13,298 nucleotides of DNA from Phycisphaerae bacterium (GTDB lineage Bacteria; Planctomycetota; Phycisphaerae; Sedimentisphaerales; SG8-4): contig JAUVYQ010000072.1 of the NCBI GenBank assembly GCA_030603035.1, forward strand, positions 1 through 13,298, read 5' to 3'. Positions 1,606 to 12,443 of this stretch are shown piece after piece (position 1 is the first letter of the stretch; each line of letters opens with the position of its first letter). The translations under genes were made by a program, and so were the position numbers. Below the pieces are notes generated by a model that searched no databases, was not told the DNA's origin, and was given only the letters and a program-made list of their open reading frames with translations.

Positions 1606-1632
1606 TTTTTGGTTCTCCTAAGCTCCGCTCCC

Positions 1633-1687
1633 GTCATTGCGAGCCCCGCCCATCGGATGGGCTGGGCGAGCGAAGCGAAGCAATCTC
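1633..1687. repeat. ATTGC...GCAAT palindromic intergenic repeat, copy 1
   Basis: The outer arms ATTGC (1636-1640) and GCAAT (1680-1684) pair, and an inner GCCCATC (1648-1654) pairs with GATGGGC (1656-1662). The segment begins GTCATTGCGAG and ends GAAGCAATCTC, as do the copies near 8503 and 8686. It lies in the 112-base gap between the M16 gene and the sulfatase, just upstream of the sulfatase SD. It is REP-like in build. No transposase partner is visible. Confidence 0.65.
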
Positions 1688-1689
1688 AA

Positions 1690-1712
1690 AATAATCAATA
1701 ATCAATAATCAA
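1690..1712. repeat. Heptamer array, unit AATAATC (3.3 copies)
   Basis: Three perfect tandem copies of AATAATC and a partial fourth occupy the space between the palindromic repeat and the stop codon of the first M16 gene. It is one of nine 7-bp-period arrays in the window. Confidence 0.7.
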
Positions 1713-1717
1713 TTTCT

Positions 1718-2932
1718 TTAAGGCCCTATTGAAAGCTGCGTGAAATCGCCCGGGTTGAACTGCTCTATCAGCGAATGAACGTCATCGACGGTAACAGCTC
1801 TTATAGCGCTGATGTCGTCCTCGATGGTGCGATACTGCTCTAAATATATCCAGTTAAAACCAAGGTCAATCAGCCGGCCCATTGGCAGCTCATTCTTTAT
1901 TACCAGTGCACTTAAAATCTTATTTTTTGCCTTTCTTAATTCGTCATTGGTTATGCCGCTTTCGGTAAGACTACGGAAAATACCCCTGACGGTATCAAGC
2001 ACTTTGCAGACATTGCCGGCGCTGCATCGGATATAACTGCAAAATGCTCCTGTCCCATCCATAGCTCCAAATTGCATCGTTGCTGCTTCTGCTAATGCCT
2101 TGTCAACCAGCTCCCAGAAAAATCTTGACCCGACATCGTCACCGACGATAACGCCTAAAAGCGAAGCGGCGAACCTCCTCGTGTCTTGAGCCGACACACC
2201 GGGGCTCATAAGGCATATATGTTCGCGAGCCAGGTTTGATTTTTCAACTCTTTCTTTCTTTTTGCTGCCTTCCCAGTGTTCCAGCTTTCTGCCGGCAACC
2301 TGCTTTTGCCACTTGCTGCAGGGACTTTCAGCAATCGAGCAGATTTGGTCCCAGTCAAAATTACCCGCACACGCCAGCACCATATTGTTCGGTGCATAAC
2401 GCCTGGCGAAAAAGGAGCGCATCTGTTCGGCCGTCAGATTATCTATACTTTCCCCACTGCCTAAAACGCTGTTCCCGCAGGGATGGCCGTCGAAGTGCAG
2501 ACTTCTGCATCTCTCCATAACATCAAAGCTCGGCAGGTCCTTATACATTGCAATTTCTTCTTTGATTACATTTTTTTCAATATCGAAATCTTTATCTCTA
2601 AGGGCCGGCCTCATCAGCTCTATCCACAGCCCCGTTACCTCGGCCAGGTATTCCGGCAAAACAGCAGCATAAAAGACGGTATTTTCCTCACTGGTGGCAG
2701 CGTTGAATTGTGCACCTGTTCTATCGAATGCCTCATTGACTTCAAACGCACTTAGTCTTTCGGTGCCCTTGAACAGCATATGTTCCAGGAAATGCGACAC
2801 CCCGTTTATCTGTTTGGGCTCATCACGGGCACCGCTCTTGACAAAAAAACCCACCACTGCCGATTTGGCGGATTTATTAACTTCCCCGATTAAACTTAAG
2901 CCGTTCGCCAGTTTCTTCTTCTTAAATTCCAT
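1718..2932 (-). CDS. M16 family zinc peptidase, catalytic subunit
   Basis: This 404-residue protein belongs to the M16 (pitrilysin/mitochondrial processing peptidase) family. It carries the inverted zinc motif His47-Phe-Leu-Glu50-His51 and the third ligand region NVIKEEI (Glu125/Glu126), at the usual spacing of about 75 residues. The length fits an M16B single-subunit peptidase with two homologous domains. The C-terminal domain has Ser269-Arg270 but reads KALAEA (278-283) where family members have the RGLCY segment, so the substrate-binding Arg/Tyr pair is incomplete. That segment is present in the adjacent upstream gene, so the two proteins probably work as a heterodimer. The gap to that gene is 68 bases on the same strand. 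No strong SD is visible before the ATG. The substrate is unknown. Confidence 0.92.
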   Translation of the reverse strand: MEFKKKKLANGLSLIGEVNKSAKSAVVGFFVKSGARDEPKQINGVSHFLEHMLFKGTERLSAFEVNEAFDRTGAQFNAATSEENTVFYAAVLPEYLAEVTGLWIELMRPALRDKDFDIEKNVIKEEIAMYKDLPSFDVMERCRSLHFDGHPCGNSVLGSGESIDNLTAEQMRSFFARRYAPNNMVLACAGNFDWDQICSIAESPCSKWQKQVAGRKLEHWEGSKKKERVEKSNLAREHICLMSPGVSAQDTRRFAASLLGVIVGDDVGSRFFWELVDKALAEAATMQFGAMDGTGAFCSYIRCSAGNVCKVLDTVRGIFRSLTESGITNDELRKAKNKILSALVIKNELPMGRLIDLGFNWIYLEQYRTIEDDISAIRAVTVDDVHSLIEQFNPGDFTQLSIGP

Positions 2933-2976
2933 ACTTTACTCTGACATTTTTAGTTTTGAATTCTCAATTGTTAGTT

Positions 2977-3006
2977 AACTCAAAACTCAACACTAAAAAC
3001 TCAAAA
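2977..3006. repeat. Heptamer array over an M16 stop codon, unit CTCAAAA
   Basis: Four tandem units (CTCAAAA, CTCAACA, CTAAAAA, CTCAAAA) run in phase from 2979 to 3006, preceded by AA. The TGA stop of the upstream M16 gene (3001-3003) falls inside the array, so the last residues of that protein are partly array-encoded. Confidence 0.6.
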
Positions 3007-4236
3007 CTTTACTTCTTTCGGGCCTATTGTTACTACCGTAAAATCTTTGAACTTGTTATTCCGCAGAAAACCCAGAACTGAATCAACGCTGGTCTCTTCG
3101 ATTTTACTCTTAATTTCATCCAGGCTTCGAACTCTGCCCAAGATGTAGTAGTCGCTTCCAATTCCCCCGGCCCGGCTGCTGGACGATTCGCTTTGCAGAA
3201 TTAGTGAGCTTTTTAATCCCACTTTGGCCCGCTCGATTTCTTCTTTGCTGATTTCAACACTTAGCCGATTGAACTCGCCGATTATCACATCGAGTGTTTC
3301 CTGACCCTTTTCCGGCGTCGTCCCTGCGTAGCACATTATACCAGCCGCACTTTTGAGACCGTGGTACCGCGCCCCTATTGCGTAGCACAGACCTCGTTTT
3401 TCTCTTACCTCTGTAAATAATCTGGCACTCATCCCGCCCGAAAGAACTGATACCGCCACCCTCGCATTGTAGTAGTCCTCATCGGCTGGTTTAACCGTCT
3501 CGGTCATCAGGCCGATGTGCACCTGCGCACCATCGTTATGCAGATGCGTATATTTACTTGATGCTGGATGCTCGATGCTGGATGCTCGATGCTGGATGTT
3601 GGTATCGAGAATCGAGAATCGAGAATCGAGAATCGAGACAATAGCATCGAAGTCGTATTTGCCGGCAACCGCAAAAATCGTCTGCGACAGATTGAAGCGG
3701 TTCTTTATAATCGCTCTTGTACTCTGGGCCGTCAAAGCCTTCAATTCGTCGATATGCCCTACAACACTGCGCCCCAGAGGACTCGGATAAAATTGCTCTC
3801 GAAGTTCGAGCATGACCTTTTGCCGGGGGTCATCGTCTAAAGCAAGCACACCATCAATTGCTAATTGCCTGGCTAATTCAAACTGGTCTTCTTTCAAGCT
3901 GGCTTCAAGTATAATATCAGCGTATAAATCTAAAGCTTGCGATAAGTTGTTGGCTTCCAGGGCCGCCCCAATGGTTATATGGGAGCTGCCGACCCCGCCT
4001 GCGCGATGCAGACCCAGCCCGTCGAGTGCGTCACCGAGTTGCCTGCTGTTTTTATCGCCGGCACCTCTGAAAACCCAGTCGGCGATAACACTCCCGGCAC
4101 CGCAGCAGCCCTCCGGCAGCAAAGCCTCTCCAGCCGGCAGCATAAAACCAAACGCCACCGACTCAACCGCCTCCATCGGCTCGCCGAAAAGGACCATCCC
4201 GTTCTTCAAGATACATTTGTCAAATCTTTCCGCCAT
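3001..4236 (-). CDS. M16 family protein, non-catalytic subunit
   Basis: This 411-residue protein has the M16 fold but no HxxEH zinc motif: the equivalent stretch reads VIADWVFRGAG (50-60). It keeps the C-terminal substrate-binding region, with Arg272 in GGMSARLF and RGLCYAIGA (281-289, Tyr285). This is the mirror image of the neighbouring gene, which has the zinc site but lacks RGLCY, and matches known heterodimeric M16B peptidases. A SD-like AAGGAA lies 7-8 bases before the ATG at 4236. Residues about 201-227 (SILDSRFSILD then HRASSIEHPASS) are encoded by a heptamer tandem array at 3560-3636 and look like an in-frame insertion between the KYDFDAIV strand and the domain linker. Its reading frame depends on the array copy number. 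Confidence 0.88.
   Translation of the reverse strand: MAERFDKCILKNGMVLFGEPMEAVESVAFGFMLPAGEALLPEGCCGAGSVIADWVFRGAGDKNSRQLGDALDGLGLHRAGGVGSSHITIGAALEANNLSQALDLYADIILEASLKEDQFELARQLAIDGVLALDDDPRQKVMLELREQFYPSPLGRSVVGHIDELKALTAQSTRAIIKNRFNLSQTIFAVAGKYDFDAIVSILDSRFSILDTNIQHRASSIEHPASSKYTHLHNDGAQVHIGLMTETVKPADEDYYNARVAVSVLSGGMSARLFTEVREKRGLCYAIGARYHGLKSAAGIMCYAGTTPEKGQETLDVIIGEFNRLSVEISKEEIERAKVGLKSSLILQSESSSSRAGGIGSDYYILGRVRSLDEIKSKIEETSVDSVLGFLRNNKFKDFTVVTIGPKEVKF
3560..3636. repeat. Intragenic heptamer array in the M16 gene (11 units)
   Basis: Eleven 7-bp units run in unbroken phase on the + strand. GATGCTG and GATGCTC alternate for five units, followed by GATGTTG, GTATCGA and four GAATCGA. 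The array is wholly inside the coding sequence and translated. The same words occur, reverse-complemented, in the intergenic array at 12395-12443. Seven is not a multiple of three, so loss or gain of one unit would shift the frame. Confidence 0.85.
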
Positions 4237-4254
4237 CCAAACATTCCTTTTTTA

Positions 4255-4278
4255 TCATTCCCGCGAAAGCGGGAATCC
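4255..4278. repeat. ATTCCCGC-GAAA-GCGGGAAT hairpin repeat, copy A
   Basis: A perfect 8-bp stem (4257-4264 with 4269-4276) is closed by a GAAA loop. The shape ATTCCC-N8-GGGAAT is that of the dRS3-type repeats known from Neisseria, though homology is not implied. It lies just upstream of the SD of the non-catalytic M16 subunit. The gap 4237-4531 holds two copies of this hairpin, two other hairpins and a heptamer array. I find no gene in it. Confidence 0.75.
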
Positions 4279-4287
4279 AGAGTATTT

Positions 4288-4340
4288 AGCCCCGAAATTT
4301 ATTGCGGGGTTGTTTAGCCGTCGCCGGCACGGCGACGCTT
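4288..4340. repeat. Two TTTAGCC-led GC hairpins
   Basis: Between the two GAAA-loop hairpins are CCCCG...CGGGG (about 4291-4310) and GTCGCCG-GCA-CGGCGAC (about 4319-4335), each preceded by TTTAGCC. A third TTTAGCC-led hairpin lies at 8733-8751. They look like members of one loose palindromic family. Confidence 0.4.
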
Positions 4341-4344
4341 TATT

Positions 4345-4368
4345 GTCATTCCCGCGAAAGCAGGAATC
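4345..4368. repeat. ATTCCCGC-GAAA hairpin repeat, copy B
   Basis: It has the same sequence as copy A except for one stem mismatch (GCAGGAAT instead of GCGGGAAT, 4360-4367). The arms are 4348-4355 and 4360-4367 around a GAAA loop. The two copies are in direct orientation 91 bases apart. Confidence 0.7.
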
Positions 4369-4497
4369 TATCTTAAATATCCACAAAAAGGAGGGCGGAT
4401 TTTACCAATAAGCAGGGATGTTTTCAACTGTGAATTGAATTTTCAGCAAAAAAACTCTAAATATTGGAGGGTTGTTGCCAATAGCCGAAAAAAGCGA

Positions 4498-4532
4498 ACG
4501 CAATACAAGATACACACAACGCAATACGAAGT
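4498..4532. repeat. Heptamer array, unit ACGCAAT and variants (5 units)
   Basis: The units ACGCAAT, ACAAGAT, ACACACA, ACGCAAT and ACGAAGT are in phase and end at the stop codon of the zinc-ribbon gene. The ACGCAAT unit is shared with the array at 8755-8789. Confidence 0.6.
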
Positions 4533-4843
4533 TAGTGAATCCCGAGTTCACTTATCGAGTCCAAGAATCGAGTATAGACGAGTATTGCGAAATAGCCTAA
4601 CAAAAAAGTAAAGACAATAACTAAACTTGTGACCACGACCTTGGTAATTATTTTATAACGCGGGTTGAACCACACCAGCGATAGGGCAAGTGGACCTAAG
4701 CACACCAGAGCAATTACGACGGCAGACGTGGTAAAGTACCATTTTCCTTTCGGCTTGCTGGGGTCATCAAGAAACTCGCCGCAAAAACGGCACTTCACGG
4801 CCTCATCCTGAATTTCCTCTGCGCAAAAGGGGCACTTCTTCAT
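4532..4843 (-). CDS. Small zinc-ribbon membrane protein downstream of smc
   Basis: From the ATG at 4843 this is a 103-residue protein. The N-terminus [12 protein letters not shown]...KCRFCGEF carries two CxxC pairs (Cys4/Cys7 and Cys18/Cys21), a double-CxxC zinc ribbon of the kind found at the start of many small bacterial membrane proteins. Two hydrophobic segments follow (about 37-60 and 67-92), so the ribbon should be cytoplasmic on a two-helix anchor. A GTG at 4852 in frame would add three residues. I prefer the ATG because the MKKCPFC start is typical, but neither start has a good SD. It begins a few bases after the smc stop (4858), which suggests co-transcription, perhaps translational coupling. 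Function is unknown. Confidence 0.75.
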
Positions 4844-4857
4844 AATACGCACTGCGT

Positions 4858-7800
4858 TTATGCTACGGCGGCCTCCTCTTCAACCTCGTCGAACCCACCG
4901 AAGCTCACGCTTATCTTCTTGCTCACCCCCCGTGTTTGCATCGTTATCCCGAACAGCACGTCCGCAATGCTCATCGTGCGCTTGGCGTGAGTGATTATTA
5001 TAAACTGCGAATCCTTCTCGAATTCACGAATCAGCATATTGAAACGCTCATTATTTGCCTCGTCCAGTGCAGCGTCAATTTCGTCAAGGAAGCAGAACGG
5101 CGACGGCTTTGTCTTGAAAACCGCAAACAAAAGGGCAATTGCAGCCAGCGCCTTTTCACCGCCGCTGAGCAATGATATGCTCCTTGTCCCCTTGCCGGGC
5201 GGCCGGGCTATTACTTCTATACCTGCTTCGAGGATATCTTCGGCATCTTCAAGAACTACATCGGCCTTGCCCCCACCGAACAGCTTGCGGAAAATCTGCT
5301 GGAAATGGACCCTGATTTCTTCGAAGGTCTCCCTGAATTTCTCCCTGCTCTTTTTGTTAAGCCGGCTTATCAATTGCTGTAGACTAACTCGGCTTGTGTT
5401 CAGGTCTTCAACTTGATTACTTAAAAAGTTGTATCGTTTCTCGAGGCCTTCCTGCTCATCTATCGCGTCCAAATTTACATTGCCGAGCCGTTCGATTTTG
5501 CTCCGAAGCTCAGCTATTTCTTCTCTTACCTTGTCCCAGTCAACCTCTTCGTCCCTGTAATTTTCGTAGGACTGGACCAGGTCAATCTGTAATTCCTCTT
5601 GCACTCTTTCAACCAGCGTCTGTGTCCTTACCTCTAACTGGCCCAGTTCTATTTTAAGCTCGCTTATTTTTTGCTCGGTTTCGCCTTGCTCAGTTCGTTT
5701 CTGACGAATTAGACGTTCTGTTTGTTTTTGTTCTTCGAGCAGCTTTTCTATTTCTTTATGCAGCTCCCTGCTGCTTTCCTGGTTCTTTTCTTTTTCGACG
5801 AACAGCTCCGACACCACCGCTTCGCAGTTAAGAATGTCCCTCTGTGAATTTTGGATTTCGGATTTCGAATTTCGAATTTCTCGCTGTGCCGCCTCAGTAG
5901 CCATCCGGTTTTCTAACATCTGGCTTTGCAGACTTACAATTGTTTGCTTCAGTGCCTTGCGGTGTTCGGTAATCTGACCCAGGGCAACTCTTAAATCCGT
6001 AAGCCGGCTCGTCTGCATCTGTTGTTCAGCTTTTTGTTCGGCGTATTTTGCCTCAAGCTCTGCTATATGAGACGTTCGCTCGCTATTTACCGCCTCCAGC
6101 TCCTGCAATTTCTGCTTCGAATCGTATTCCTTCTGCACCGATTGGGTGATCTGTTCTTCCAGCAGGTCGATTTCGCCGGCTATCAATGGCTGCTCATCTC
6201 TCAGCCGCTTTATATTTTGTTCTATTACGCCGAGCTTTGAGCTCACCTGCATCTTTTCCGTATTCGCTTCATAAACAGCCGTTCGCAGGTCCTTACACAA
6301 TTTAGCCAGATGTTCGTTCACCTGTTCATTTTTCTTAATTTGTCCTTCGGCCGCCTCAATCTCACCTGTAATATTGGCGATGGTCTCCTGCAATTGACGC
6401 AGTCGGCTTTTGCGTGATATCAAACCCATTGTTTTCCCTAAAGGCCCGAGGGTTATCGCCCCGTCAGCGCTTAACGATTCGCCCTTTAGAGTAACAAATT
6501 TATACCCATCTCCTGTGCTTTTGGCTAATTCAATTGCCGCATCGATTGAGTCAACGATTATCGTTTTGCCTAACAATTTCCAGACTAATGGTGCGTATTT
6601 GCTCTCATATTTTACGAATTCAACGACCCTGCCCATAACGGGCGGCAGTTTCGACAAATCTTTTTTGTCCACGAACGGCTCTATTTTATCCATACAGATG
6701 AAATTCGCTCTGCCTTCGAGTCTTTCGATTGTTTCCGTATCGGCCAACAGTCTGTTTGTGTTGTTGATTACCAGGGCGTCGGTTTTGCCCTCAAGGGCGG
6801 CCTCAACGGCATTTGCATATTTGACATCGGCCGCAATCATATCTGCCACTATTCCTTCGATGTAATCTAATTTATTGACTGACCGATTCGCTAAAATGCT
6901 TTTAACACCCGTATTAAGCCCCTCGCGTCTTCCCTCCATATCCGTCAATATCGCCAGCTCGACGCTCAGTGCGCTTCGTGCCTCGCGGCTCGCGGTTAAT
7001 CGCTTGTTGTCCGTTGCGAGCAGGCTGTTGATTTCTTCTGTTTTGTTGCGTTTGGTTTCTAAATTCTGTGTCAATTCACCTAACACTTTTTCGATATCGT
7101 TCAAGCGGGCCTTGTGTTGCGCCTTTTCGGTAAGCAGCTTTTCAAGTTCCGTGCAGGCACGTTCCGCCCGGCTGGCAAGACGGTCCTTCTGACCGGATAA
7201 ATTGTTGCGATAAACTGAAATGCTCTGGATTTCGTTATGAAGTTGCGCCGTCCTTCTGACTATATCGATAACGCCTGATTTCTCATCTTCCAAATCCGCC
7301 TCGAGCGAGCCACATTCGGTGTTTATTTCCTCGATGGCTTTTTGGATTTGCGAGACGGCCTGGCTTTTCTCTTCGAGCATCTTTTCGCAGTTTGCCAGCT
7401 CGCTGTTGTATTGTGCTGAATCTGCTGTAAAGAGGTTTTTCTGCTCCTGCAGTTTTTCGACTCTCTCACCTGCCGAGTCCTTTCTTTGCTGCAGTTCTGT
7501 AATTCTCGTTCGCAAAAATTCAATTCGTTGAAGCTGCTGCTCGATTTTGCTCTCAACGGCAACAAGGCAATTGTCTGTATGGCTTAGTTTATGCTCCGCT
7601 TCTATTTTCTCTTCGCCCAGTTTGCTCATCAGGGCGTCATTCTTTGCTACCTCCGCTGCCAGCCGCCCCAACTGTTCCTCTACCTGCTCAAGAGCAATTT
7701 TCTTCTCTCCAAGTTGCGTCTTTATCTTGTGATATTCAACCAGCGAGTAATTGACCTGCAGCTCCTTGAGCCTTTGGCTGTATCGCAGGTAGTTTCGCGC

Positions 7801-8445
7801 TTTACCCGCCTGAAGTTTCACACTTCGCAGTCTCTTTGTCACTTCGCCCAGGATATCCGCAAGCCGCAGCAGGTTTTGTTCCGCATGTTCCAGTTTACGA
7901 AGTGCCTCTTTCTTGTGCGCTTTATACTTGCTTATGCCCGCCGCTTCTTCGAATATAACCCTTCTGTCTGTTTTCGATGCGCTTAATAACTGCTCAATCT
8001 GTCCCTGCTCAAGAATCGAGTATGCTCTGGCGCCTATGCCGGTGTCCATAAATAGTTCTCGGACATCTTTCAATCGGCAGATTTTATTGTTTATCCGATA
8101 TTCACTCTCCCCGCTCTTGTATATCCGCCGTGTAATTTGCACCTCGTCGGCCTCAATTGGCAGCTGTCTCGTCCCGGTTCCATCGGAATTGGAGATAAAT
8201 AAGTTCACTTCAGCTGCGCCGAGAGGTTTTCTGCTGCTGCTTCCGCTGAATATCACATCAGCCATCTGCCCGCCTCGCAGGCTCTTGACACTTTGTTCCC
8301 CGAGTACCCACTTTACCGCATCGACGATATTGCTCTTACCGCAGCCGTTCGGTCCAACAATGGCGGTTATAGACGAATCGAAAGCAAATTTTGTTTTGTC
8401 GGCGAAACTTTTGAATCCATCAAGAACGATTTTTTCAAGTCTCAT
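4858..8445 (-). CDS. smc: Chromosome segregation protein SMC
   Basis: This is a complete 1195-residue SMC ATPase, the usual length for bacterial SMC. The N-terminal head has Walker A GPNGCGKS (31-38) and the [10 protein letters not shown] segment (about 143-152). Long coiled coils flank a hinge at about 520-670. The C-terminal head has the signature LSGGEK (1093-1098), Walker B FCFLDEID (1117-1124) and a switch histidine in ITHAKRT (about 1153). It should dimerise at the hinge and act with ScpA/ScpB in chromosome compaction and segregation; neither partner gene is in the window. A SD-like AGGG lies 8 bases before the ATG. Residues 856-867 ([12 protein letters not shown]) in the second coiled coil are encoded by a heptamer array at 5846-5880, apparently an in-frame insertion. 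Confidence 0.97.
5846..5880. repeat. Intragenic heptamer array in smc (5 units)
   Basis: The units GAATTTT, GGATTTC, GGATTTC, GAATTTC and GAATTTC are in phase inside the smc coding sequence. Read on the - strand they encode [12 protein letters not shown] within the C-terminal coiled coil. The 35 bases plus one make twelve codons, so the frame is kept. Confidence 0.75.
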
Positions 8446-8471
8446 TTTTTTTACCCTGCTGGTAGTGTGTT

Positions 8472-8530
8472 GTCATTGCGAGGCCTGCGATTACTCCAAT
8501 TAGTCATTGCGAGCGCAGCGAAGCAATCCC
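8472..8530. repeat. ATTGC...GCAAT palindromic repeat, one partial and one full copy
   Basis: A truncated copy (GTCATTGCGAGGCCTGCGA, 8472-8490) is followed by a full short copy at 8503-8530 with arms ATTGC (8506-8510) and GCAAT (8523-8527). They lie directly upstream of smc. The gap 8446-8823 (378 bases) holds this pair, a hairpin, two heptamer arrays, a third palindromic copy and a GC hairpin. I see no gene in it. Confidence 0.6.
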
Positions 8531-8542
8531 TTCTTCCGCCTG

Positions 8543-8579
8543 GGTGGCACCCTCAAACTTGTTTGGGGGTGATTCCACC
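8543..8579. repeat. Long hairpin upstream of smc
   Basis: GGTGG (8543-8547) pairs with CCACC (8575-8579), and CACCCTCAAAC (8548-8558) pairs with GTTTGGGGGTG (8561-8571) with one G-T type mismatch and a two-base loop. A three-base bulge separates the two stems. It is probably a dispersed palindromic repeat. There is no T tract, so a terminator role is not supported. Confidence 0.55.
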
Positions 8580-8587
8580 ACTCATCT

Positions 8588-8678
8588 GTCCTCTGTCGTC
8601 CGTCCTCTGTCGTCTGTCGTCCGTCCTCTGTCGTCCGTCCTCTGTCGTCCGTCCTCTGTCGTCCGTCCCCTGTCCTCT
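8588..8678. repeat. Heptamer array, units GTCCTCT and GTCGTCC (13 units)
   Basis: This is the longest array in the window, with thirteen units in unbroken phase. They mostly alternate GTCCTCT and GTCGTCC, so they can also be read as a 14-mer, with GTCGTCT and GTCCCCT variants. It is intergenic between the FlgI-like gene and smc. The apparent + strand reading frames across it are repeat translations, not genes. Confidence 0.9.
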
Positions 8679-8685
8679 ACACCCT

Positions 8686-8723
8686 GTCATTGCGAGGCCT
8701 GCGAAGCAGGCCGTGGCAATCTC
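8686..8723. repeat. ATTGC...GCAAT palindromic repeat with internal 7-bp hairpin
   Basis: ATTGC (8689-8693) and GCAAT (8716-8720) enclose GGCCTGC-GAA-GCAGGCC (8696-8712). The start GTCATTGCGAGGCCTGCGA is identical to the truncated copy at 8472, so that copy has probably lost its right half. Confidence 0.65.
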
Positions 8724-8732
8724 AATATTTAG

Positions 8733-8751
8733 CCGGCGGTTTTACCGCCGG
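8733..8751. repeat. Perfect 8-bp GC hairpin, TTT loop
   Basis: CCGGCGGT (8733-8740) pairs with ACCGCCGG (8744-8751). It lies between the FlgI-like stop codon (8824) and smc, so it could end or process the FlgI-like transcript. No T tract follows on either strand, and a similar TTTAGCC-led arrangement at 4288-4340 suggests a dispersed repeat. Confidence 0.5.
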
Positions 8752-8754
8752 TTA

Positions 8755-8789
8755 ACGCAATACGCAATACGATATACGCAATACGATAT
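8755..8789. repeat. Heptamer array, units ACGCAAT and ACGATAT (5 units)
   Basis: The order is ACGCAAT, ACGCAAT, ACGATAT, ACGCAAT, ACGATAT, without interruption, between the GC hairpin and the FlgI-like stop codon. It shares its unit with the array at 4498-4532. Confidence 0.8.
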
Positions 8790-8823
8790 TATTATCGGCC
8801 GAGGGTCTGTTTTCTCTTGACAA

Positions 8824-10419
8824 TTAGTCGATTTTTGGTAAGGGCCCAGCCCGAAACTCTGCTCTTACAGCGCCTTTATCGCACATCTGCTTCAAAAGGG
8901 CTATCATATCAGCGTATGAAACGCCCAAGCCGAGGTGTCCTTCCGCAGCTTTTTTGATGGGCTCTTCGCAGAGTGTTCGAATAATATCGCCGAGTTCAAA
9001 AGTGCTTTTCAATTGCACTATTACGCTGGGCCGCTTGGGGTGTTTGCGCATTATTGAGACATATTTTTGCCCGGCCGGTGCATTTATTGTTATATTGCCG
9101 TCTGATGACTCCACAAAAATATTGCGCTGGCAGGATATCGGCGCACCGAATAACACAATTCGGGGCTGACCACTCCGAGAAACGAAAATCGTCGTGTGTT
9201 TCGTTTGTGCGATTTCTTCAAGATAAAAATTATGCGCAACGAGCGTTTGTGTTACGGCAATATCGTCTAATTTCCGCAGTTGCTCGTATGCAGCCAATCT
9301 GATTGCAAAATCTTCGTCCCGCAGCAGTCGTTGTGATATCGCAGCCGCAGCAGTGCGCCTCGCCGCCGAGGTGATTGCCTCCAGCGCCTCGATGCGATAA
9401 GCCGAACCTTTATGCATTGCTATCTCCCTGAGCGTCTCCAGACCAATGTCACTGCCCAGATTGAGCGTACATCTGGCTGCTCGCAGACGAACCTCCTCAT
9501 CGGACGAATTCAACAGCGCAGCCAGCTTGCTAAGACTTTCGTTGCCTATCGCCTCAAGAGCAATTTCGCCGGCATACTTGTCCTTGGAAACAGCAAGCTT
9601 TCTAACAAATCTCTTTATTCTTTCTCTGGTGATTTCCCGCGTTTCAAAAAGATACGTTGCCTTGACTATCGAGACGAACCTTTGTTTTTGTTCTTTGTAT
9701 TTAGCCGGTACTTTCAATACAATCTGCCACTCGTTTACCGCTTTGGCCATATCGTCCCAGCGTCCGTTTAAGCGGTCGCGAATACGGGCTGCGGTTCTAT
9801 AATCCGGACGCCGAAGTGCCAGCCATACCCTGTAATCATCAAGCACCGTCCCGCCGGCCAGGACATATCCATTTTTTTTATCTGTTCCGGAAGTGCTGAT
9901 TGTATTTATGAAGACAGGACCTTTTGCCGCAGCCAGAACTTTTGTAGTTATGCCGAGGCCGCCTGCTATCTTAAGCTCAGCGTCATACAACCAGCCGCCT
10001 TCCAGAGAAGTTGTTTGCGTACCCGGCAGGGCAGCTACTCGTACATCGAAGTATTGGTTTTTCGAAGCTGTTGCCGGTATCAGCCCGTGCACTAATACTA
10101 CAGCGGTATCGCGACTGCTAATAAATTTTTCAACGTCTATTTTGGCCTCGGGCAATTGCGTCAGGATATATTTTGTAAGATATGCTCTAATCTGTGGCGG
10201 ACATTCCGCAGAACCTGTCCCGTTAAGACCGGCTACCATCCCGTACCCTTCGACGAGGATTGATTCAAGTGAGAACACCTCGACCAGCGACCCTATTGTA
10301 GGGCCTAAATCTATATCGGGTGCGAGTTCTTTACCGACCGGCTCACCACAGCCGGCTATCAAAAAACCGATAAGCAGTATGCTTGTTACACAAACCGTTT
10401 TTATACTCCGGATATCCAT
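8824..10419 (-). CDS. FlgI-like (flagellar P-ring-like) lipoprotein with HEAT-like insertion
   Basis: From the ATG at 10419 this is 531 residues. A short basic start, a hydrophobic stretch and LIAGC (Cys24) form a clear lipoprotein signal. Residues about 42-255 follow FlgI: VEGYGMVAGLNGTG matches the FlgI VGYGLVVGLNGTGD region, with later FDVRVAALPGTQTTSLEGGWL and a RIRDRLNGR...VLKVP stretch. About 280-390 is helical and HEAT-like, with repeated Leu/Ala-rich pairs such as EEVRLRAARCTL and EDFAIRLAAYEQL. After a strand-rich part, the C-terminus returns to FlgI with VSYADMIALLKQMCDKGAVRAEF. FlgI is normally about 350-380 residues and not a lipoprotein, so this is a divergent paralogue, perhaps in another envelope ring. 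No flagellar genes adjoin. A GTG at 10434 is an alternative start; neither has a clear SD. Confidence 0.75.
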   Translation of the reverse strand: MDIRSIKTVCVTSILLIGFLIAGCGEPVGKELAPDIDLGPTIGSLVEVFSLESILVEGYGMVAGLNGTGSAECPPQIRAYLTKYILTQLPEAKIDVEKFISSRDTAVVLVHGLIPATASKNQYFDVRVAALPGTQTTSLEGGWLYDAELKIAGGLGITTKVLAAAKGPVFINTISTSGTDKKNGYVLAGGTVLDDYRVWLALRRPDYRTAARIRDRLNGRWDDMAKAVNEWQIVLKVPAKYKEQKQRFVSIVKATYLFETREITRERIKRFVRKLAVSKDKYAGEIALEAIGNESLSKLAALLNSSDEEVRLRAARCTLNLGSDIGLETLREIAMHKGSAYRIEALEAITSAARRTAAAAISQRLLRDEDFAIRLAAYEQLRKLDDIAVTQTLVAHNFYLEEIAQTKHTTIFVSRSGQPRIVLFGAPISCQRNIFVESSDGNITINAPAGQKYVSIMRKHPKRPSVIVQLKSTFELGDIIRTLCEEPIKKAAEGHLGLGVSYADMIALLKQMCDKGAVRAEFRAGPLPKID

Positions 10420-10444
10420 AGAAATAAACACCACAAAAAAACCG

Positions 10445-10513
10445 TTTTCTATTTACTATTCGTACTAAATACGCATCCTCTTCAATAGTAAATAGAAAAT
10501 AACAAATAGTCAA
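10445..10513. repeat. Inverted pair of heptamer arrays forming a 16-bp stem
   Basis: A 16-base arm (10445-10460) is perfectly complementary to 10484-10499, with a 23-base loop. The right arm continues as the units TAGTAAA, TAGAAAA, TAACAAA and TAGTCAA (10486-10513). The left arm is the reverse complement of the first two. A further GAGTAAA-TAGTAAA pair lies at 10541-10554. It sits upstream of the FlgI-like start in the 139-base gap after yjbQ. Confidence 0.75.
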
Positions 10514-10558
10514 TATCGAAGATCCGGCGTCTTTTTGACGGAGTAAATAGTAAATTGT

Positions 10559-10978
10559 TCACTCGCCGATTATCTGGCAGATGACCGTTCTTGTTCTCGA
10601 CCTCGTATCGAAATCTACTAAGATAATTTGCTGCCAGGTACCGAGCGTTAATCGGCCGTCAACGACAGGCACGCTCAAAGAAGGCCCCAAAATCGAAGCC
10701 CGCACGTGGGAATGACCGTTATCGTCGTGCCAGGTCTCTTCGTGCTCATACCGGGCGTTTCGCGGTGCGATTTTCTCAAACGCCGCTGCTATATCGTAAT
10801 TAACTAGCCCCGGCTCATATTCCGTAGTCGTAATCCCTGCCGTCGAGCCGACATTGAAAAGCGTAACGGCTCCCTCTCTAATACCCGATTGTGCCGCTGC
10901 CTCGCTGACCTGCTCGGTAATATTGACTATATCGCAGTTACCTTTTGTTTCGACCTTTATCTTTTCCGTCTTAACCAT
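10559..10978 (-). CDS. YjbQ/UPF0047 family protein
   Basis: This is a 139-residue protein, the normal length for the UPF0047/YjbQ family, whose E. coli member has weak thiamine-phosphate synthase activity; the main role is unsettled. Family landmarks are STAGITTTEYEPGLVNYDI (45-63), HDDNGHSHVRASILGPS (84-100) with putative metal ligands His84, His89 and His91, and DGRLTLGTWQQI (107-118). I chose the ATG at 10978. An upstream ATG at 11107 in frame would add 43 residues translated from a palindromic repeat and is not credible. There is no proper SD, but a promoter-like TTGCAA-N17-TATACT ends 7 bases before the ATG, suggesting a leaderless message. It is divergent from the phosphodiesterase-fold gene at 11310. 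Confidence 0.9.
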   Translation of the reverse strand: MVKTEKIKVETKGNCDIVNITEQVSEAAAQSGIREGAVTLFNVGSTAGITTTEYEPGLVNYDIAAAFEKIAPRNARYEHEETWHDDNGHSHVRASILGPSLSVPVVDGRLTLGTWQQIILVDFDTRSRTRTVICQIIGE

Positions 10979-11014
10979 ATTGCAAAGTATACCACCAAAG
11001 GTGGAGTATTGCAA
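10979..11014 (-). promoter_or_regulatory. Putative leaderless promoter of yjbQ with operator-like palindrome
   Basis: On the - strand, TTGCAA (11014-11009) and TATACT (10991-10986) are 17 bases apart, and TATACT ends 7 bases before the ATG, so transcription should start at or next to the start codon. The spacer is largely filled by the palindrome CCACCAAAGGTGG (10992-11004), a good operator candidate. This fits the absence of an SD. The regulator is unknown. Confidence 0.45.
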
Positions 11015-11028
11015 CCATCCCCGATTAG

Positions 11029-11079
11029 CCCCGACCCCTGCCTGTCCGCCGAAGCCTCGGCGAAGGCGGATGGTCGGGG
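11029..11079. repeat. 51-bp palindromic repeat upstream of yjbQ
   Basis: CCCCGACC (11029-11036) pairs with GGTCGGGG (11072-11079). TCCGCC (11045-11050) pairs with GGCGGA (11065-11070), and an inner GCCGA/TCGGC can close the tip. It creates the false N-terminal extension of yjbQ. It lies in the 331-base gap between the divergent genes; the rest of that gap holds the yjbQ promoter, the restriction-modification remnant and the SD of the + strand gene. Confidence 0.65.
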
Positions 11080-11191
11080 TCCCTGCAGTCGGCGTCTTTC
11101 CCGTCATACAAAATACACTTGCCTTTTCCCACTCTTGATGGTACTATTGTCCTAAATCTGGCTATAACAATGCCTATGGAGAAACACCCAA

Positions 11192-11278
11192 ATGTCTAAC
11201 GCGCCGCCCAGAGTTACAGAACTTATCGAAACGTTTGACCATAACATCGACGCCCACAACGACTGGCCAATGAAATAG
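11192..11278 (+). pseudogene. Remnant resembling the N-terminus of an Eco57I-type restriction-modification protein
   Basis: A 28-codon frame starts at ATG 11192, with GGAG at 11178-11181 as SD, and ends at TAG 11276-11278. Its start, MSNAPP then RVTELIETFDHNIDAHN, resembles from memory the beginning of type IIG/Eco57I-like enzymes (ELVERFDRNIDAYKSG-YNEAQ-RREF). In another frame just downstream, about 11260-11300, NEIVRERVLGG recalls the next conserved piece, suggesting a frameshift and then a deletion into the following gene. It could instead be a real short leader peptide for the gene at 11310. Homology is recalled, not computed. Confidence 0.4.
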
Positions 11279-11309
11279 TTCGTGAGAGAGTACTTGGAGG
11301 TCATACAAT

Positions 11310-12140
11310 ATGAAGACTTTCTCAATTGCGTTAAGAGCACTGCTAATCATAATATTGGCTGTCAGCGTGTGTACCGGAGGTTGTGCCGGTACAAAACTTG
11401 GATCGCCGACAAGGGTTGCGGTTTTAACGTACAATATCTACCACGGCGAGGACGCCGATGGAGGTTCGAATCTGGATGCCGTTGCCAGGATAATAAACAC
11501 GCTGGAACCCGATCTTGTTGCGCTTCAGGAAGTCGACAAAAAGACGACACGCGCCAAAGGGCTCGACCTGACGGCCGAATTAAGCAAACGCACCGGCATG
11601 CAGGGAGTGTTTGGCAAAGCTATGGACTACGCCGGTGGTGGGTATGGAGAAGCCGTTCTTTCCCGCTATCCTGTCCTCTATACGAAGAATAACCCGCTGC
11701 CGCACAGCGCTAAAGCTGAGCCGCGAACCGCCCTGGAAGTTCAGATAGAACTGCCGAATGGAGCGAAAATAGCGTTTGTAGGTACGCACTTGGATCATCT
11801 GCGGGACCAGAGCAATAGGATGATGCAGGCAAGCCGTATCAGGGAGTTGTACGAGAATTATGACCTTCCGATAGTCTTGGCGGGCGATCTGAACGCGGTT
11901 CCAGGCAGCGACCCAATCAATCTTCTCAGCCGACAATGGTCTTATGCCGCCCAAGGTAATCCGCAGCCGACAGCTCCTTCCGTCAGGCCAAGAAGAAAAA
12001 TCGACTACATTATGTACAAACCGAAGGACCGATGGAAGGTAGTGGAGGTACGGGTGATAGATGAGAAAGTTGCCTCAGATCACTGCCCGGTGTTCTCGGT
12101 GCTGGAGCTGCTGCCGGACGGCGAGGGCAAGAAACGCTAA
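11310..12140 (+). CDS. Lipoprotein of the endonuclease/exonuclease/phosphatase family
   Basis: This 276-residue metal-dependent hydrolase belongs to the DNase I/synaptojanin-like fold. Motifs in order are LTYNIYHG (39-46, Asn42), ALQEVD (71-76, metal ligand Glu74), GTHLDH (158-163, His160), AGDLNAVPGS (191-200, Asp193/Asn195), IDYIMY (231-236) and SDHCPV (256-261, catalytic Asp257-His258). All key residues are present. The N-terminus has a hydrophobic core and TGGC at Cys25, so it should be a lipid-anchored envelope protein acting on an exported or outside phosphoester. The family covers nucleases, sphingomyelinases and inositol phosphatases, and I cannot choose. The ATG at 11310 has a GGAGG SD 9 bases upstream. 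It transcribes toward the rRNA operon, and no convincing terminator follows. Confidence 0.9.
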   Translation: MKTFSIALRALLIIILAVSVCTGGCAGTKLGSPTRVAVLTYNIYHGEDADGGSNLDAVARIINTLEPDLVALQEVDKKTTRAKGLDLTAELSKRTGMQGVFGKAMDYAGGGYGEAVLSRYPVLYTKNNPLPHSAKAEPRTALEVQIELPNGAKIAFVGTHLDHLRDQSNRMMQASRIRELYENYDLPIVLAGDLNAVPGSDPINLLSRQWSYAAQGNPQPTAPSVRPRRKIDYIMYKPKDRWKVVEVRVIDEKVASDHCPVFSVLELLPDGEGKKR

Positions 12141-12321
12141 TCGCGGCGGCTGGCCAATAAAAAACCAAAGTCGAAACTTCGCCCGTAGGGCCTCCACAAT
12201 TTTGCATTTTACACTCGCCTGTCAGAAGCGAATCTCACGATTTTAATTTTTGCATTTCCCTCCCCCAATAGTCAACCAAAATCAACCCCAAAAGCTTGTC
12301 CTGCCTGTCCCGTCCCAAATA

Positions 12322-12357
12322 GGCTTCTCCCGTCATTTGGTGCGGGGAGCAAAGCCG
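12322..12357. repeat. Imperfect hairpin repeat
   Basis: GGCTT plus CTCCCG pair with CGGGGAG plus AAGCC around a loop of about ten bases, with bulges. It lies in the non-coding stretch 12141-12560 after the phosphodiesterase-fold gene. That stretch otherwise holds a heptamer array and AT-rich sequence before the rRNA promoter, and I see no gene in it. Confidence 0.35.
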
Positions 12358-12394
12358 AAGGATCAAAAACCTCCAATTCTGCCCCAACCACCAA

Positions 12395-12443
12395 GAATCG
12401 AGCATCCAGCATCGAGCATCGAGCGACAAGCGACGAGCAACGA
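12395..12443. repeat. Heptamer array, unit GCATCGA and variants (7 units)
   Basis: The units GAATCGA, GCATCCA, GCATCGA, GCATCGA, GCGACAA, GCGACGA and GCAACGA are in phase. The GCATCGA and GCATCCA words are the reverse complement of those in the intragenic array at 3560-3636, and GAATCGA occurs in both, tying the two loci together. Confidence 0.85.

What the first reader, a model, noticed from the sequence alone, without database searches (positions are those of the whole stretch)
1690..12443. Nine unrelated-looking tandem arrays all have a 7-bp period
Arrays at 1690-1712, 2977-3006, 3560-3636, 4498-4532, 5846-5880, 8588-8678, 8755-8789, 10445-10513 and 12395-12443 use different words (AATAATC, CTCAAAA, GATGCTG, ACGCAAT, GGATTTC, GTCCTCT, TAGTAAA, GCATCGA), yet each steps by exactly seven, often mixing two sister units that differ at one to three positions. 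Ordinary slippage would give varied periods, so a shared seven-base mechanism is suggested. Heptanucleotide repeats (STRR) are known in heterocystous cyanobacteria; I do not know of a description for this group.
Basis: partly seen in the sequence, partly recalled or inferred. Interest (0 to 1): 0.85.

Follow-up and report, generated by a model that had tools for sequence, protein, structure and literature searches.

The report
Seven-base repeat arrays, some hairpin-paired
A lineage of uncultured planctomycete bacteria carries many short DNA arrays that all repeat every seven bases although their words differ; a minority lie in mirror-image pairs that can fold into hairpins, and some sit inside genes without breaking them.

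Summary
Seven of nine listed arrays exceed all 300 shuffles at lag 7; 4498-4532 and 10445-10513 do not. In the window no lag from 4 to 35 other than multiples of 7 reaches that level. By its relatives the window is Phycisphaerae, near Sedimentisphaerales. In the nearest held genome, 40 stretches (656 kb) give 41 period-7 segments against at most 5 at any other period from 4 to 13. A period-7 excess with a polymerase-slippage explanation is already in print, so that idea is not new. Added here: many words at once (65 among 132 arrays), shared between two relatives (31 of 68 against 3.3 expected); about a fifth of arrays have an inverted partner within 100 bp, and 12 of 12 neighbouring arrays are inverted; arrays sit in frame inside SMC, an M16-family gene, fumarase, a pseudouridine synthase and a helicase; orthologous intergenic sites hold different words. 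Best reading: arrays grow in 7-bp steps during replication, and some are carried by dispersed repeats. Why seven is inferred, not shown.

The parts
1690..1713 (.). array A1, word AATAATC, 3.4 copies, directly 3' of the M16-family gene that ends at 1718 (- strand), abutting a palindromic repeat (about 1632-1687)
2977..3008 (.). array A2, AACTCAA type, intergenic, with inverted partner on its left; the same site holds heptamer-like AATCAAT/AGTAAAT sequence in L002 and a different palindrome in L010 and L001
3560..3602 (.). array A3 left arm, GATGCTG/GATGCTC, inside the M16-family gene (3001-4236, - strand), in frame
3604..3638 (.). array A3 right arm, ATCGAGA x5, inverted relative to the left arm; together an imperfect hairpin (DNA folding z -6.8)
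4497..4532 (.). A4, ACGCAAT-like, decayed; does not pass the lag-7 test
5846..5880 (.). array A5, GAATTTC/GGATTTC, inside smc, in frame; same length as the ordinary coding sequence of relatives
8585..8678 (.). array A6, GTCCTCT/GTCGTCC, about 13 units with 14- and 35-bp higher-order periods; no hairpin (z 0.4)
8502..8684. stretch absent from L010 and L046 that holds A6 together with a palindromic repeat (GTCATTGCGAGCGCAGCGAAGCAATC) and a second palindrome; ends approximate, read
8755..8789 (.). array A7, ACGCAAT/ACGATAT, identical in L046 (genome G002)
10445..10460 (.). A8 left hairpin arm (TTTTCTATTTACTATT)
10484..10499 (.). A8 right hairpin arm (AATAGTAAATAGAAAA), followed by decayed heptamers to about 10515; hairpin also folds in L010, L001 and L046; L010 and L001 differ by 14 bp
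12395..12443 (.). array A9, ATCGAGC/ATCCAGC passing into GACGAGC/AACGACC, 480 bp before the 16S rRNA gene; L010 has a related array there with other units

Best explanation
These are heptanucleotide tandem arrays of the 'long simple sequence repeat' kind, present across the genomes of this Phycisphaerae/Sedimentisphaerales lineage. Shown: the period is fixed at 7 while the words vary; copy number differs by whole 7-bp units between some homologous arrays; words are re-used within and between genomes; a minority of arrays form the two arms of an imperfect hairpin; one set of arrays is carried by a dispersed repeat; in-gene arrays keep the reading frame. Inferred: arrays are born and lengthened by replication slippage or template switching whose step is set by the replication machinery (about 7 bp of primer-template duplex) and not by the word. 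Fold-back copying, or slippage at both feet of a hairpin, makes the inverted pairs. Selection on the frame leaves in-gene copies only in tolerant places; in SMC the 7-residue repeat encoded by a 7-bp array fits the coiled-coil heptad.
For: Period: (G001: 41 segments at 7; 0, 0, 1, 5, 1, 2, 0, 2, 0 at 4, 5, 6, 8, 9, 10, 11, 12, 13). TCGANNN x3: 116 in G001; TCGANNNN x3: 0. Unit steps: three copies of one dispersed element carry 5, 5 and 4 units, and L265 is a copy without array; L010 and L001 differ by 14 bp at A8. Inverted pairs: 23.4% of 128 arrays against 4.5% of controls, forward flank 4.7% against 4.7%; after dropping a G run 29 of 127 arrays at 23 places; 12 of 12 neighbouring arrays inverted, 8 strongly. 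A8 hairpin folds in four species, z -6.1, -4.1, -3.0, -2.6. Vocabulary. In-gene differences: SMC 0, M16-family +6, fumarase +63, helicase +45, pseudouridine synthase +96 nt against named relatives, all multiples of 3. SMC: 68 of 69 rows without a gap over 51 columns; residue 871 is Ile in 66 of 69 rows, 857 and 864 mostly hydrophobic.
Against: The step from 'period 7' to 'set by the polymerase' is not tested by any search. A3, A5 and A7 show no unit change between species, so slippage there is slow or selected against. Re-used words are not predicted by word-independent slippage. Arrays do not lie next to palindromes more often than random intergenic DNA does (p = 0.51), so a hairpin trigger for all arrays is not supported. 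The pseudouridine-synthase insert is a whole arm-spacer-arm unit, which looks like insertion and not local growth. Lengths of the two arms in 8 strong pairs are not correlated (rho 0.20, p 0.63). G002 shows no partner in 6 arrays and the window 1 in 7 by the flank test, which cannot see A3's inner pair.
Confidence: 0.5

Rival explanations
1. Mobile hairpin elements (MITE- or REP-like) whose arms happen to be heptamer arrays are inserted by an enzyme acting in trans; tandem growth is secondary.
For: A pseudouridine-synthase gene (PF01416) of G001 carries a 96-bp arm-spacer-arm insert missing from G303 and G004; HSP gaps in G003 fit too. Three arrays in G001 lie inside one dispersed element between direct repeats (20 bp, exact in two of three), and L265 is a copy with neither array nor second repeat. 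Fumarase holds an array in G001 and a palindromic element at the same site in L130. Same-word array pairs share flanks more often (11 of 234 against 2 of 1855), though in 6 of those 11 pairs the shared flank is itself array-like. All 7 array-bearing genomes tried have a Y1 transposase.
Against: No common terminal sequence (65 words). Y1 transposase is also in 5 of 7 array-poor genomes, and in G001 it scores low (28 bits, cut-off 23). No target-site duplication was seen at the pseudouridine-synthase insert. Most arrays have no detected partner.
Confidence: 0.22
2. Selected regulatory or terminator hairpins: the structure is kept while the sequence drifts, the 7-bp unit being a by-product.
For: 64 of 103 arrays are intergenic though about 16% of this DNA is intergenic. 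The A8 hairpin folds in four species. One orthologous site holds heptamer arrays of different words in G003 (L295) and G001 (L272), inverted in both as I read them (only L295 was folded).
Against: Convergent gene pairs hold 6 of 64 intergenic arrays though 20% of intergenic bases, unlike terminators. 39 of 103 arrays lie inside longest-ORF calls. A6 and A7 do not fold. Words and presence turn over between species.
Confidence: 0.13
3. Ordinary word-by-word microsatellite slippage with no preferred length.
For: Arrays have degenerate sister units and higher-order 14-, 21- and 35-bp periods, as slippage or unequal exchange would give.
Against: Periods 4-6 and 8-13 are rare beside 7 in G001, G003 and the window.
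Confidence: 0.05
4. Assembly artefact of metagenome bins.
For: The close relatives are MAGs.
Against: A3 and A5 stand at the same place with the same copy number in the window and in L010, and A7 in the window and L046; genes stay open through the arrays.
Confidence: 0.03

Closest known systems
Heptanucleotide long simple sequence repeats of prokaryotes (Mrazek 2007; not held, seen only as cited in PMC4679880 and PMC4692102)
   Same: Unit of 7 nt over-represented in many genomes; polymerase-contact explanation proposed.
   Different: The cited passages do not mention inverted pairing, in-frame arrays in housekeeping genes, or word exchange at orthologous sites; what the paper itself says was not seen.
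GGGAATC arrays of Xanthomonas and GGGGAYT arrays of Nostoc (Rehm 2015, PMC4692102; passages and section 10 read)
   Same: Heptamer arrays, mostly intergenic, dispersed; 70 cases in Xcc (186 repeats) and 75 in Xac (183) are inverted neighbours.
   Different: One G-rich word type per lineage, G-quadruplex forming; here 65 words, only 5 of 132 with GGG/CCC, and neither word found.
TAACTGA direct repeats of marine Beggiatoaceae (MacGregor 2015, PMC4679880; abstract, introduction and section 8 read)
   Same: Heptamer direct repeats, intergenic, found in distant lineages.
   Different: A single favoured word, 169 direct sets and one inverted; the word is absent from our 132 arrays.
Heptanucleotide elements of Geobacter metallireducens (PMC2700814; passages read)
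   Same: Dispersed elements of four or five heptamers; class 3 word MTYCTGA matches the consensus of 3 of 132 arrays here.
   Different: Two word types, annotated as putative regulatory elements.
7-bp repeats before hmw1A of Haemophilus influenzae (listing and abstract starts only)
   Same: Tandem 7-bp units.
   Different: One locus, phase variation; no such variation could be tested here.
Palindromic repeats inserted in frame into genes of Rickettsia (RPE; recalled, one search gave only a listing)
   Same: Short repeats tolerated in frame inside housekeeping genes.
   Different: RPEs are families with fixed palindromes (recalled), not heptamer arrays.

Membership tests
Heptanucleotide long simple sequence repeats | tandem 7-nt units longer than chance | tested here: met
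Heptanucleotide long simple sequence repeats | 7 is the favoured unit length among 5-11 | tested here: met
   (G001, G003, window clearly; small counts elsewhere)
Heptanucleotide long simple sequence repeats | copy number changes by whole units | tested here: inconclusive
   7 and 14 bp differences; no change in A3, A5 and A7; other indels also seen
Xanthomonas/Nostoc G-rich heptamers | GGGNATC or GGGGAYT word | tested here: not met
   0 of 132 arrays
Xanthomonas/Nostoc G-rich heptamers | neighbouring arrays in inverted orientation | tested here: met
   12 of 12 neighbours within 100 bp, 8 strongly
TAACTGA repeats | word TAACTGA | tested here: not met
   0 of 132 arrays
Cyanobacterial STRR | the published STRR words | not tested
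   no held paper has both search terms
MITE | shared terminal inverted repeats within a family | tested here: not met
   words differ between arrays
MITE | target-site duplication | tested here: inconclusive
   none visible at the pseudouridine-synthase insert; direct repeats flank the array in one dispersed element and are single in the empty copy L265
Phase-variable contingency repeats | high copy-number variation between strains | not testable with these tools
   no two strains of one species were held; between species in-gene arrays A3 and A5 are unchanged

The most novel reading that the evidence does not exclude
A word-independent process with a built-in step of seven base pairs writes paired inverted heptamer arrays into bacterial chromosomes. 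It acts in lineages as far apart as Planctomycetota and Xanthomonas, and it replaces one word by another at the same site, so that the hairpin and the period persist while the sequence does not.
Probability: 0.2. Interest if true: 0.8.

Novelty: new variant of a known kind. Interest (0 to 1): 0.55.

Why it matters
The excess of seven among bacterial repeat units has a proposed but, in what I read, untested explanation. A lineage with dozens of words, a sharp period, paired arms and arrays placed in aligned genes gives material to separate a polymerase-set step from copying and from selection. It also warns that repeats such as SRIENRE in predicted proteins of these bacteria are DNA-level arrays and not protein domains, and suggests that a 7-bp DNA repeat can be absorbed into a coiled coil because it encodes a 7-residue repeat.

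Tried and rejected
Ku-dependent end joining as the source: Ku in 1 of 31 genomes, and that one (G320) has no TCGA array. Loss of mismatch repair: MutS domain V present in 28 of 31, G001 included; not found in G002, G305 and G320, which may be incomplete bins. Y1 (REP-type) transposase: 7 of 7 array-bearing and 5 of 7 array-poor genomes, so neither excluded nor supported. Palindromes beside arrays: no excess (77 flanks, 1500 controls, p = 0.51; stems of 7 or more 11.7% against 6.1%). 'Length-preserving overwriting' as a rule: it holds for SMC (0) but the other four genes show +6, +45, +63 and +96 nt. Word ATCGAGN across Planctomycetota: 5 of 294 genomes, G001 among them; the reversed control pattern was itself found in 6 others, so it is no clean control but shows other heptamer words elsewhere. 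Plasmids and phages: one Parabacteroides plasmid and one phage record with partial matches, two viral contigs; not pursued. Rfam: above the gathering score only the 16S rRNA in the window; for the dispersed element one chance-level match.

Limits: the own genome is not held. Of the 20 Planctomycetota genomes, four (G150, G183, G187, G261) were chosen because the control pattern hit them, and 7 of the 20 stretches are under 10 kb. One 'array' of that sample (L196) is a G run; it is in the counts and was dropped. Seven of the 9 remaining arrays of that sample have a partner, most of them on one stretch (L194), against 22 of 118 in the other samples. Arrays nearer than 110 bp to a stretch end were dropped before the flank test (132 to 128). 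Neighbouring direct arrays closer than about 4 bp are merged by the method, which lowers the count of direct neighbours. Word sharing may include some arrays at orthologous sites. 'Inside ORF' (39) uses longest-ORF calls and includes spurious ORFs. For other periods the wider sample also has some inverted partners (5 of 59 against 1.6%).
Full report
What is in the window. The window carries a sulfatase, two M16-family peptidase genes, a small protein with a weak zinc-ribbon match, smc, a FlgI-like protein with HEAT repeats, UPF0047, an endonuclease/exonuclease/phosphatase-family protein and the start of a 16S rRNA gene. Its SMC protein is 92-93% identical to two MAG proteins (L010, L046) and 33-79% to the other 75 loci found; most titles name Planctomycetota, Phycisphaerae or Sedimentisphaerales. 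The window's own genome is not held.

Observation. Seven of the nine arrays beat all 300 shuffles at lag 7; two do not. In the window, scored segments of 12 or more occur only at lags 7, 14, 21, 28 and 35 among 4-35; exact runs with 100 shuffles agree apart from single runs at 26, 27 and 31. Two intervals are misdescribed: 3560-3638 is two arrays in inverted orientation, and 10445-10513 is a perfect 16-bp hairpin with decayed heptamers.

Genome-wide. In the nearest held genome (G001, that of L010), the first 20 stretches (312,579 bases) gave 24 arrays at period 7 and at most 7 at any other period up to 30; 40 stretches (656 kb) gave 41 scored segments at 7 and 22 at 14, with 0-5 at the other periods from 4 to 16. 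G003 (31 stretches, 475 kb) gave 28 at 7, 19 at 14 and at most 7 elsewhere. Samples of 18 relatives (255 kb) gave 5 at 7 and at most 1 elsewhere; G002 (74 kb) gave 2 at 7, 2 at 14 and at most 1 elsewhere, too few to judge. The 20-genome Planctomycetota sample (265 kb; four genomes chosen for control-pattern hits) gave 8 at 7, 5 at 9 and 4 at 12. With the fixed core TCGA, three copies spaced by 7 occur 116 times in G001, 98 in G003, 40 in G006 and 24 in G002, and in 19 of the 31 genomes; spaced by 8 they occur in 3 of those 31, once each, and not in G001. Twelve of the 31 have none at spacing 7, so the load varies between relatives.

Words. Among 132 arrays there are 65 consensus words. 31 of 68 G001 arrays have a word found exactly in G003 (base-shuffled words: mean 3.3, maximum 9 in 200 trials), 16 of 36 the other way; for the wider sample 2 of 10 against 0.4 (maximum 3). 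So the vocabulary is shared between these two relatives more than chance allows; for the wider sample this is not shown. One published word family, MTYCTGA of Geobacter metallireducens, matches 3 of the 132; the six other published words tried match none. Outside that set L039 has TGATTAG, the word class of GTGATTA named for Helicobacter pylori.

Inverted pairing. The reverse complement of an array is found within 100 bp (score 10 or more) for 23.4% of 128 arrays against 4.5% of controls (Mann-Whitney p 1.1e-6 on all scores), while the array itself in forward direction is not (4.7% and 4.7%). Without a G run it is 29 of 127 arrays at 23 places: G001 13 of 64, G003 7 of 36, window 1 of 7, G002 0 of 6, 18 relatives 1 of 5, wider sample 7 of 9. 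For period-7 segments alone it is 19 of 97 in the Sedimentisphaerales-type set (control 5.7%) and for other periods 2 of 46 (control 2.9%); with the wider sample 24 of 105 and 5 of 59 (controls 5.2% and 1.6%). Of 12 neighbouring arrays within 100 bp all 12 are closer in inverted orientation, eight of them strongly (score 9 or more). Single-strand DNA folding z-scores: -3.7 (L281), -4.6 (L295), -6.1 (A8), -6.8 (A3), -5.6 (L194), -1.4 (pseudouridine-synthase insert), +0.4 (A6, A7). In A3 the two arms use different variants of one word (GATGCTG/GATGCTC against GATTCTC read on one strand), which suggests that each arm was amplified on its own. Rehm 2015 reports such pairing for GGGAATC in Xanthomonas.

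Inside genes. SMC: 68 of 69 aligned proteins have no gap over 51 columns around the array; residue 871 is Ile in 66 of 69, and residues 864 and 857, seven and fourteen residues before it, are mostly hydrophobic (Ile in the array). L020, whose SMC is 68% identical, carries a related, decayed heptamer stretch at the same place (29 of 37 bases equal to the window, 16-19 for four ordinary alleles; lag 7 is its best lag of 4-11). M16-family protein: array in window and L010, ordinary sequence 6 nt shorter in L001 and L002. In G001: fumarase (PF05681) +63 nt against L125, L126, L146 and L147, helicase +45 nt against G002, a tRNA pseudouridine synthase (PF01416, TruA-type by my reading) +96 nt against G303 and G004. 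All five differences are multiples of three, as selection on frame would require. Further in-gene arrays in G001 (RecG N-terminus, a TPR protein, SurE) were seen but not compared. Fumarase of G318 (L130) has a palindromic element at the site where G001 has its array.

Change over time. In the window and L010, A3 and A5 have equal copy number with one substitution each; A7 is identical in L046. L010 and L001 differ by 14 bp in the A8 intergenic stretch (105 and 91 bp); the loop is conserved in window, L010 and L001 and diverged in L046, and a hairpin folds in all four (z -6.1, -4.1, -3.0, -2.6). Three copies of a dispersed element in G001 hold 5, 5 and 4 units of one array between direct repeats; L265 is a copy that runs through without array and with a single repeat, while L272, L280 and a second stretch of L100 have about 80 bp of the element's own sequence between the two matches and no heptamer array. 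At orthologous intergenic sites the word differs: L268:1907 against L298, L295:13827 against L272, window A2 against L002; in another case an array stands against a palindrome (L268:15340 against L298).

Place. Of 103 arrays in G001, G003, G002 and the window, 64 are intergenic (40 between co-directional, 18 divergent, 6 convergent genes) and 39 inside longest-ORF calls; intergenic DNA is about 16% of these stretches.

Mechanism. Shown: period, word variety, re-use, inverted pairing, in-frame tolerance, some whole-unit changes, carriage in one dispersed element. Inferred: the step of seven is set by the replication machinery; pairs arise by fold-back copying or by slippage at both feet of a hairpin. 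Ku was not found in 30 of 31 genomes and MutS was found in 28 of 31, so neither end joining nor missing repair is the simple cause. Palindromes as a general trigger were tested and not supported.

Compared with what is known. Heptanucleotide excess and the polymerase-contact idea are in print (Mrazek 2007, not held; as cited in the introduction of PMC4679880, and passages of PMC4692102). PMC6749651 (passages) lists Rhodopirellula baltica in its table of bacteria with many satellites and notes heptamer-derived families. PMC4060949 (passages) has no mention of heptamers under the terms tried. Searches for Planctomycet + heptamer + tandem repeat (2 papers), Sedimentisphaer + tandem repeat (none) and heptameric repeat + inverted repeat + intergenic (2 papers, one on Xanthomonas/Nostoc) found no description of multi-word paired arrays in this group; papers outside the held library were not searched.

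Noticed in passing
L115:7410-7584: A dispersed repeat of about 170 bp, with many matches in G002, G003, G303 and G004 and in the G001 stretches, containing ATTGGGTTTG units; some copies carry a heptamer array inside.
   Followed up: partly
window 1632-1687, 8502-8529, 8685-8723: Palindromic repeats of the GTCATTGCGAG...GCAATC type lying beside heptamer arrays; a general association was not significant.
   Followed up: partly
window 4256-4280 and about 4346-4370: Second palindromic repeat, TCATTCCCGCGAAAGCGGGAATC type; its first copy also matches twice in L010.
   Followed up: no
window 8827-10434: FlgI (flagellar P-ring) domain joined to HEAT repeats in one predicted protein.
   Followed up: partly
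L130 (fumarase gene of G318): In-frame palindromic element (TATTTAGCC type) at the site where G001 carries a heptamer array.
   Followed up: partly
L020 smc: Decayed heptamer stretch at the same SMC site as in the window in a more distant genome; independent origin or exchange is undecided.
   Followed up: partly
G183, G187: Reversed control pattern AGCTNNN x3 found 166 and 97 times: other Planctomycetota seem to have their own heptamer words.
   Followed up: no
L303, L304: ATCGAGA arrays in two IMG/VR viral contigs.
   Followed up: no
L305 (Parabacteroides distasonis plasmid 3): 35-nt match (91%) to the ATCGAGA array inside carA; not checked whether it is an array there.
   Followed up: no
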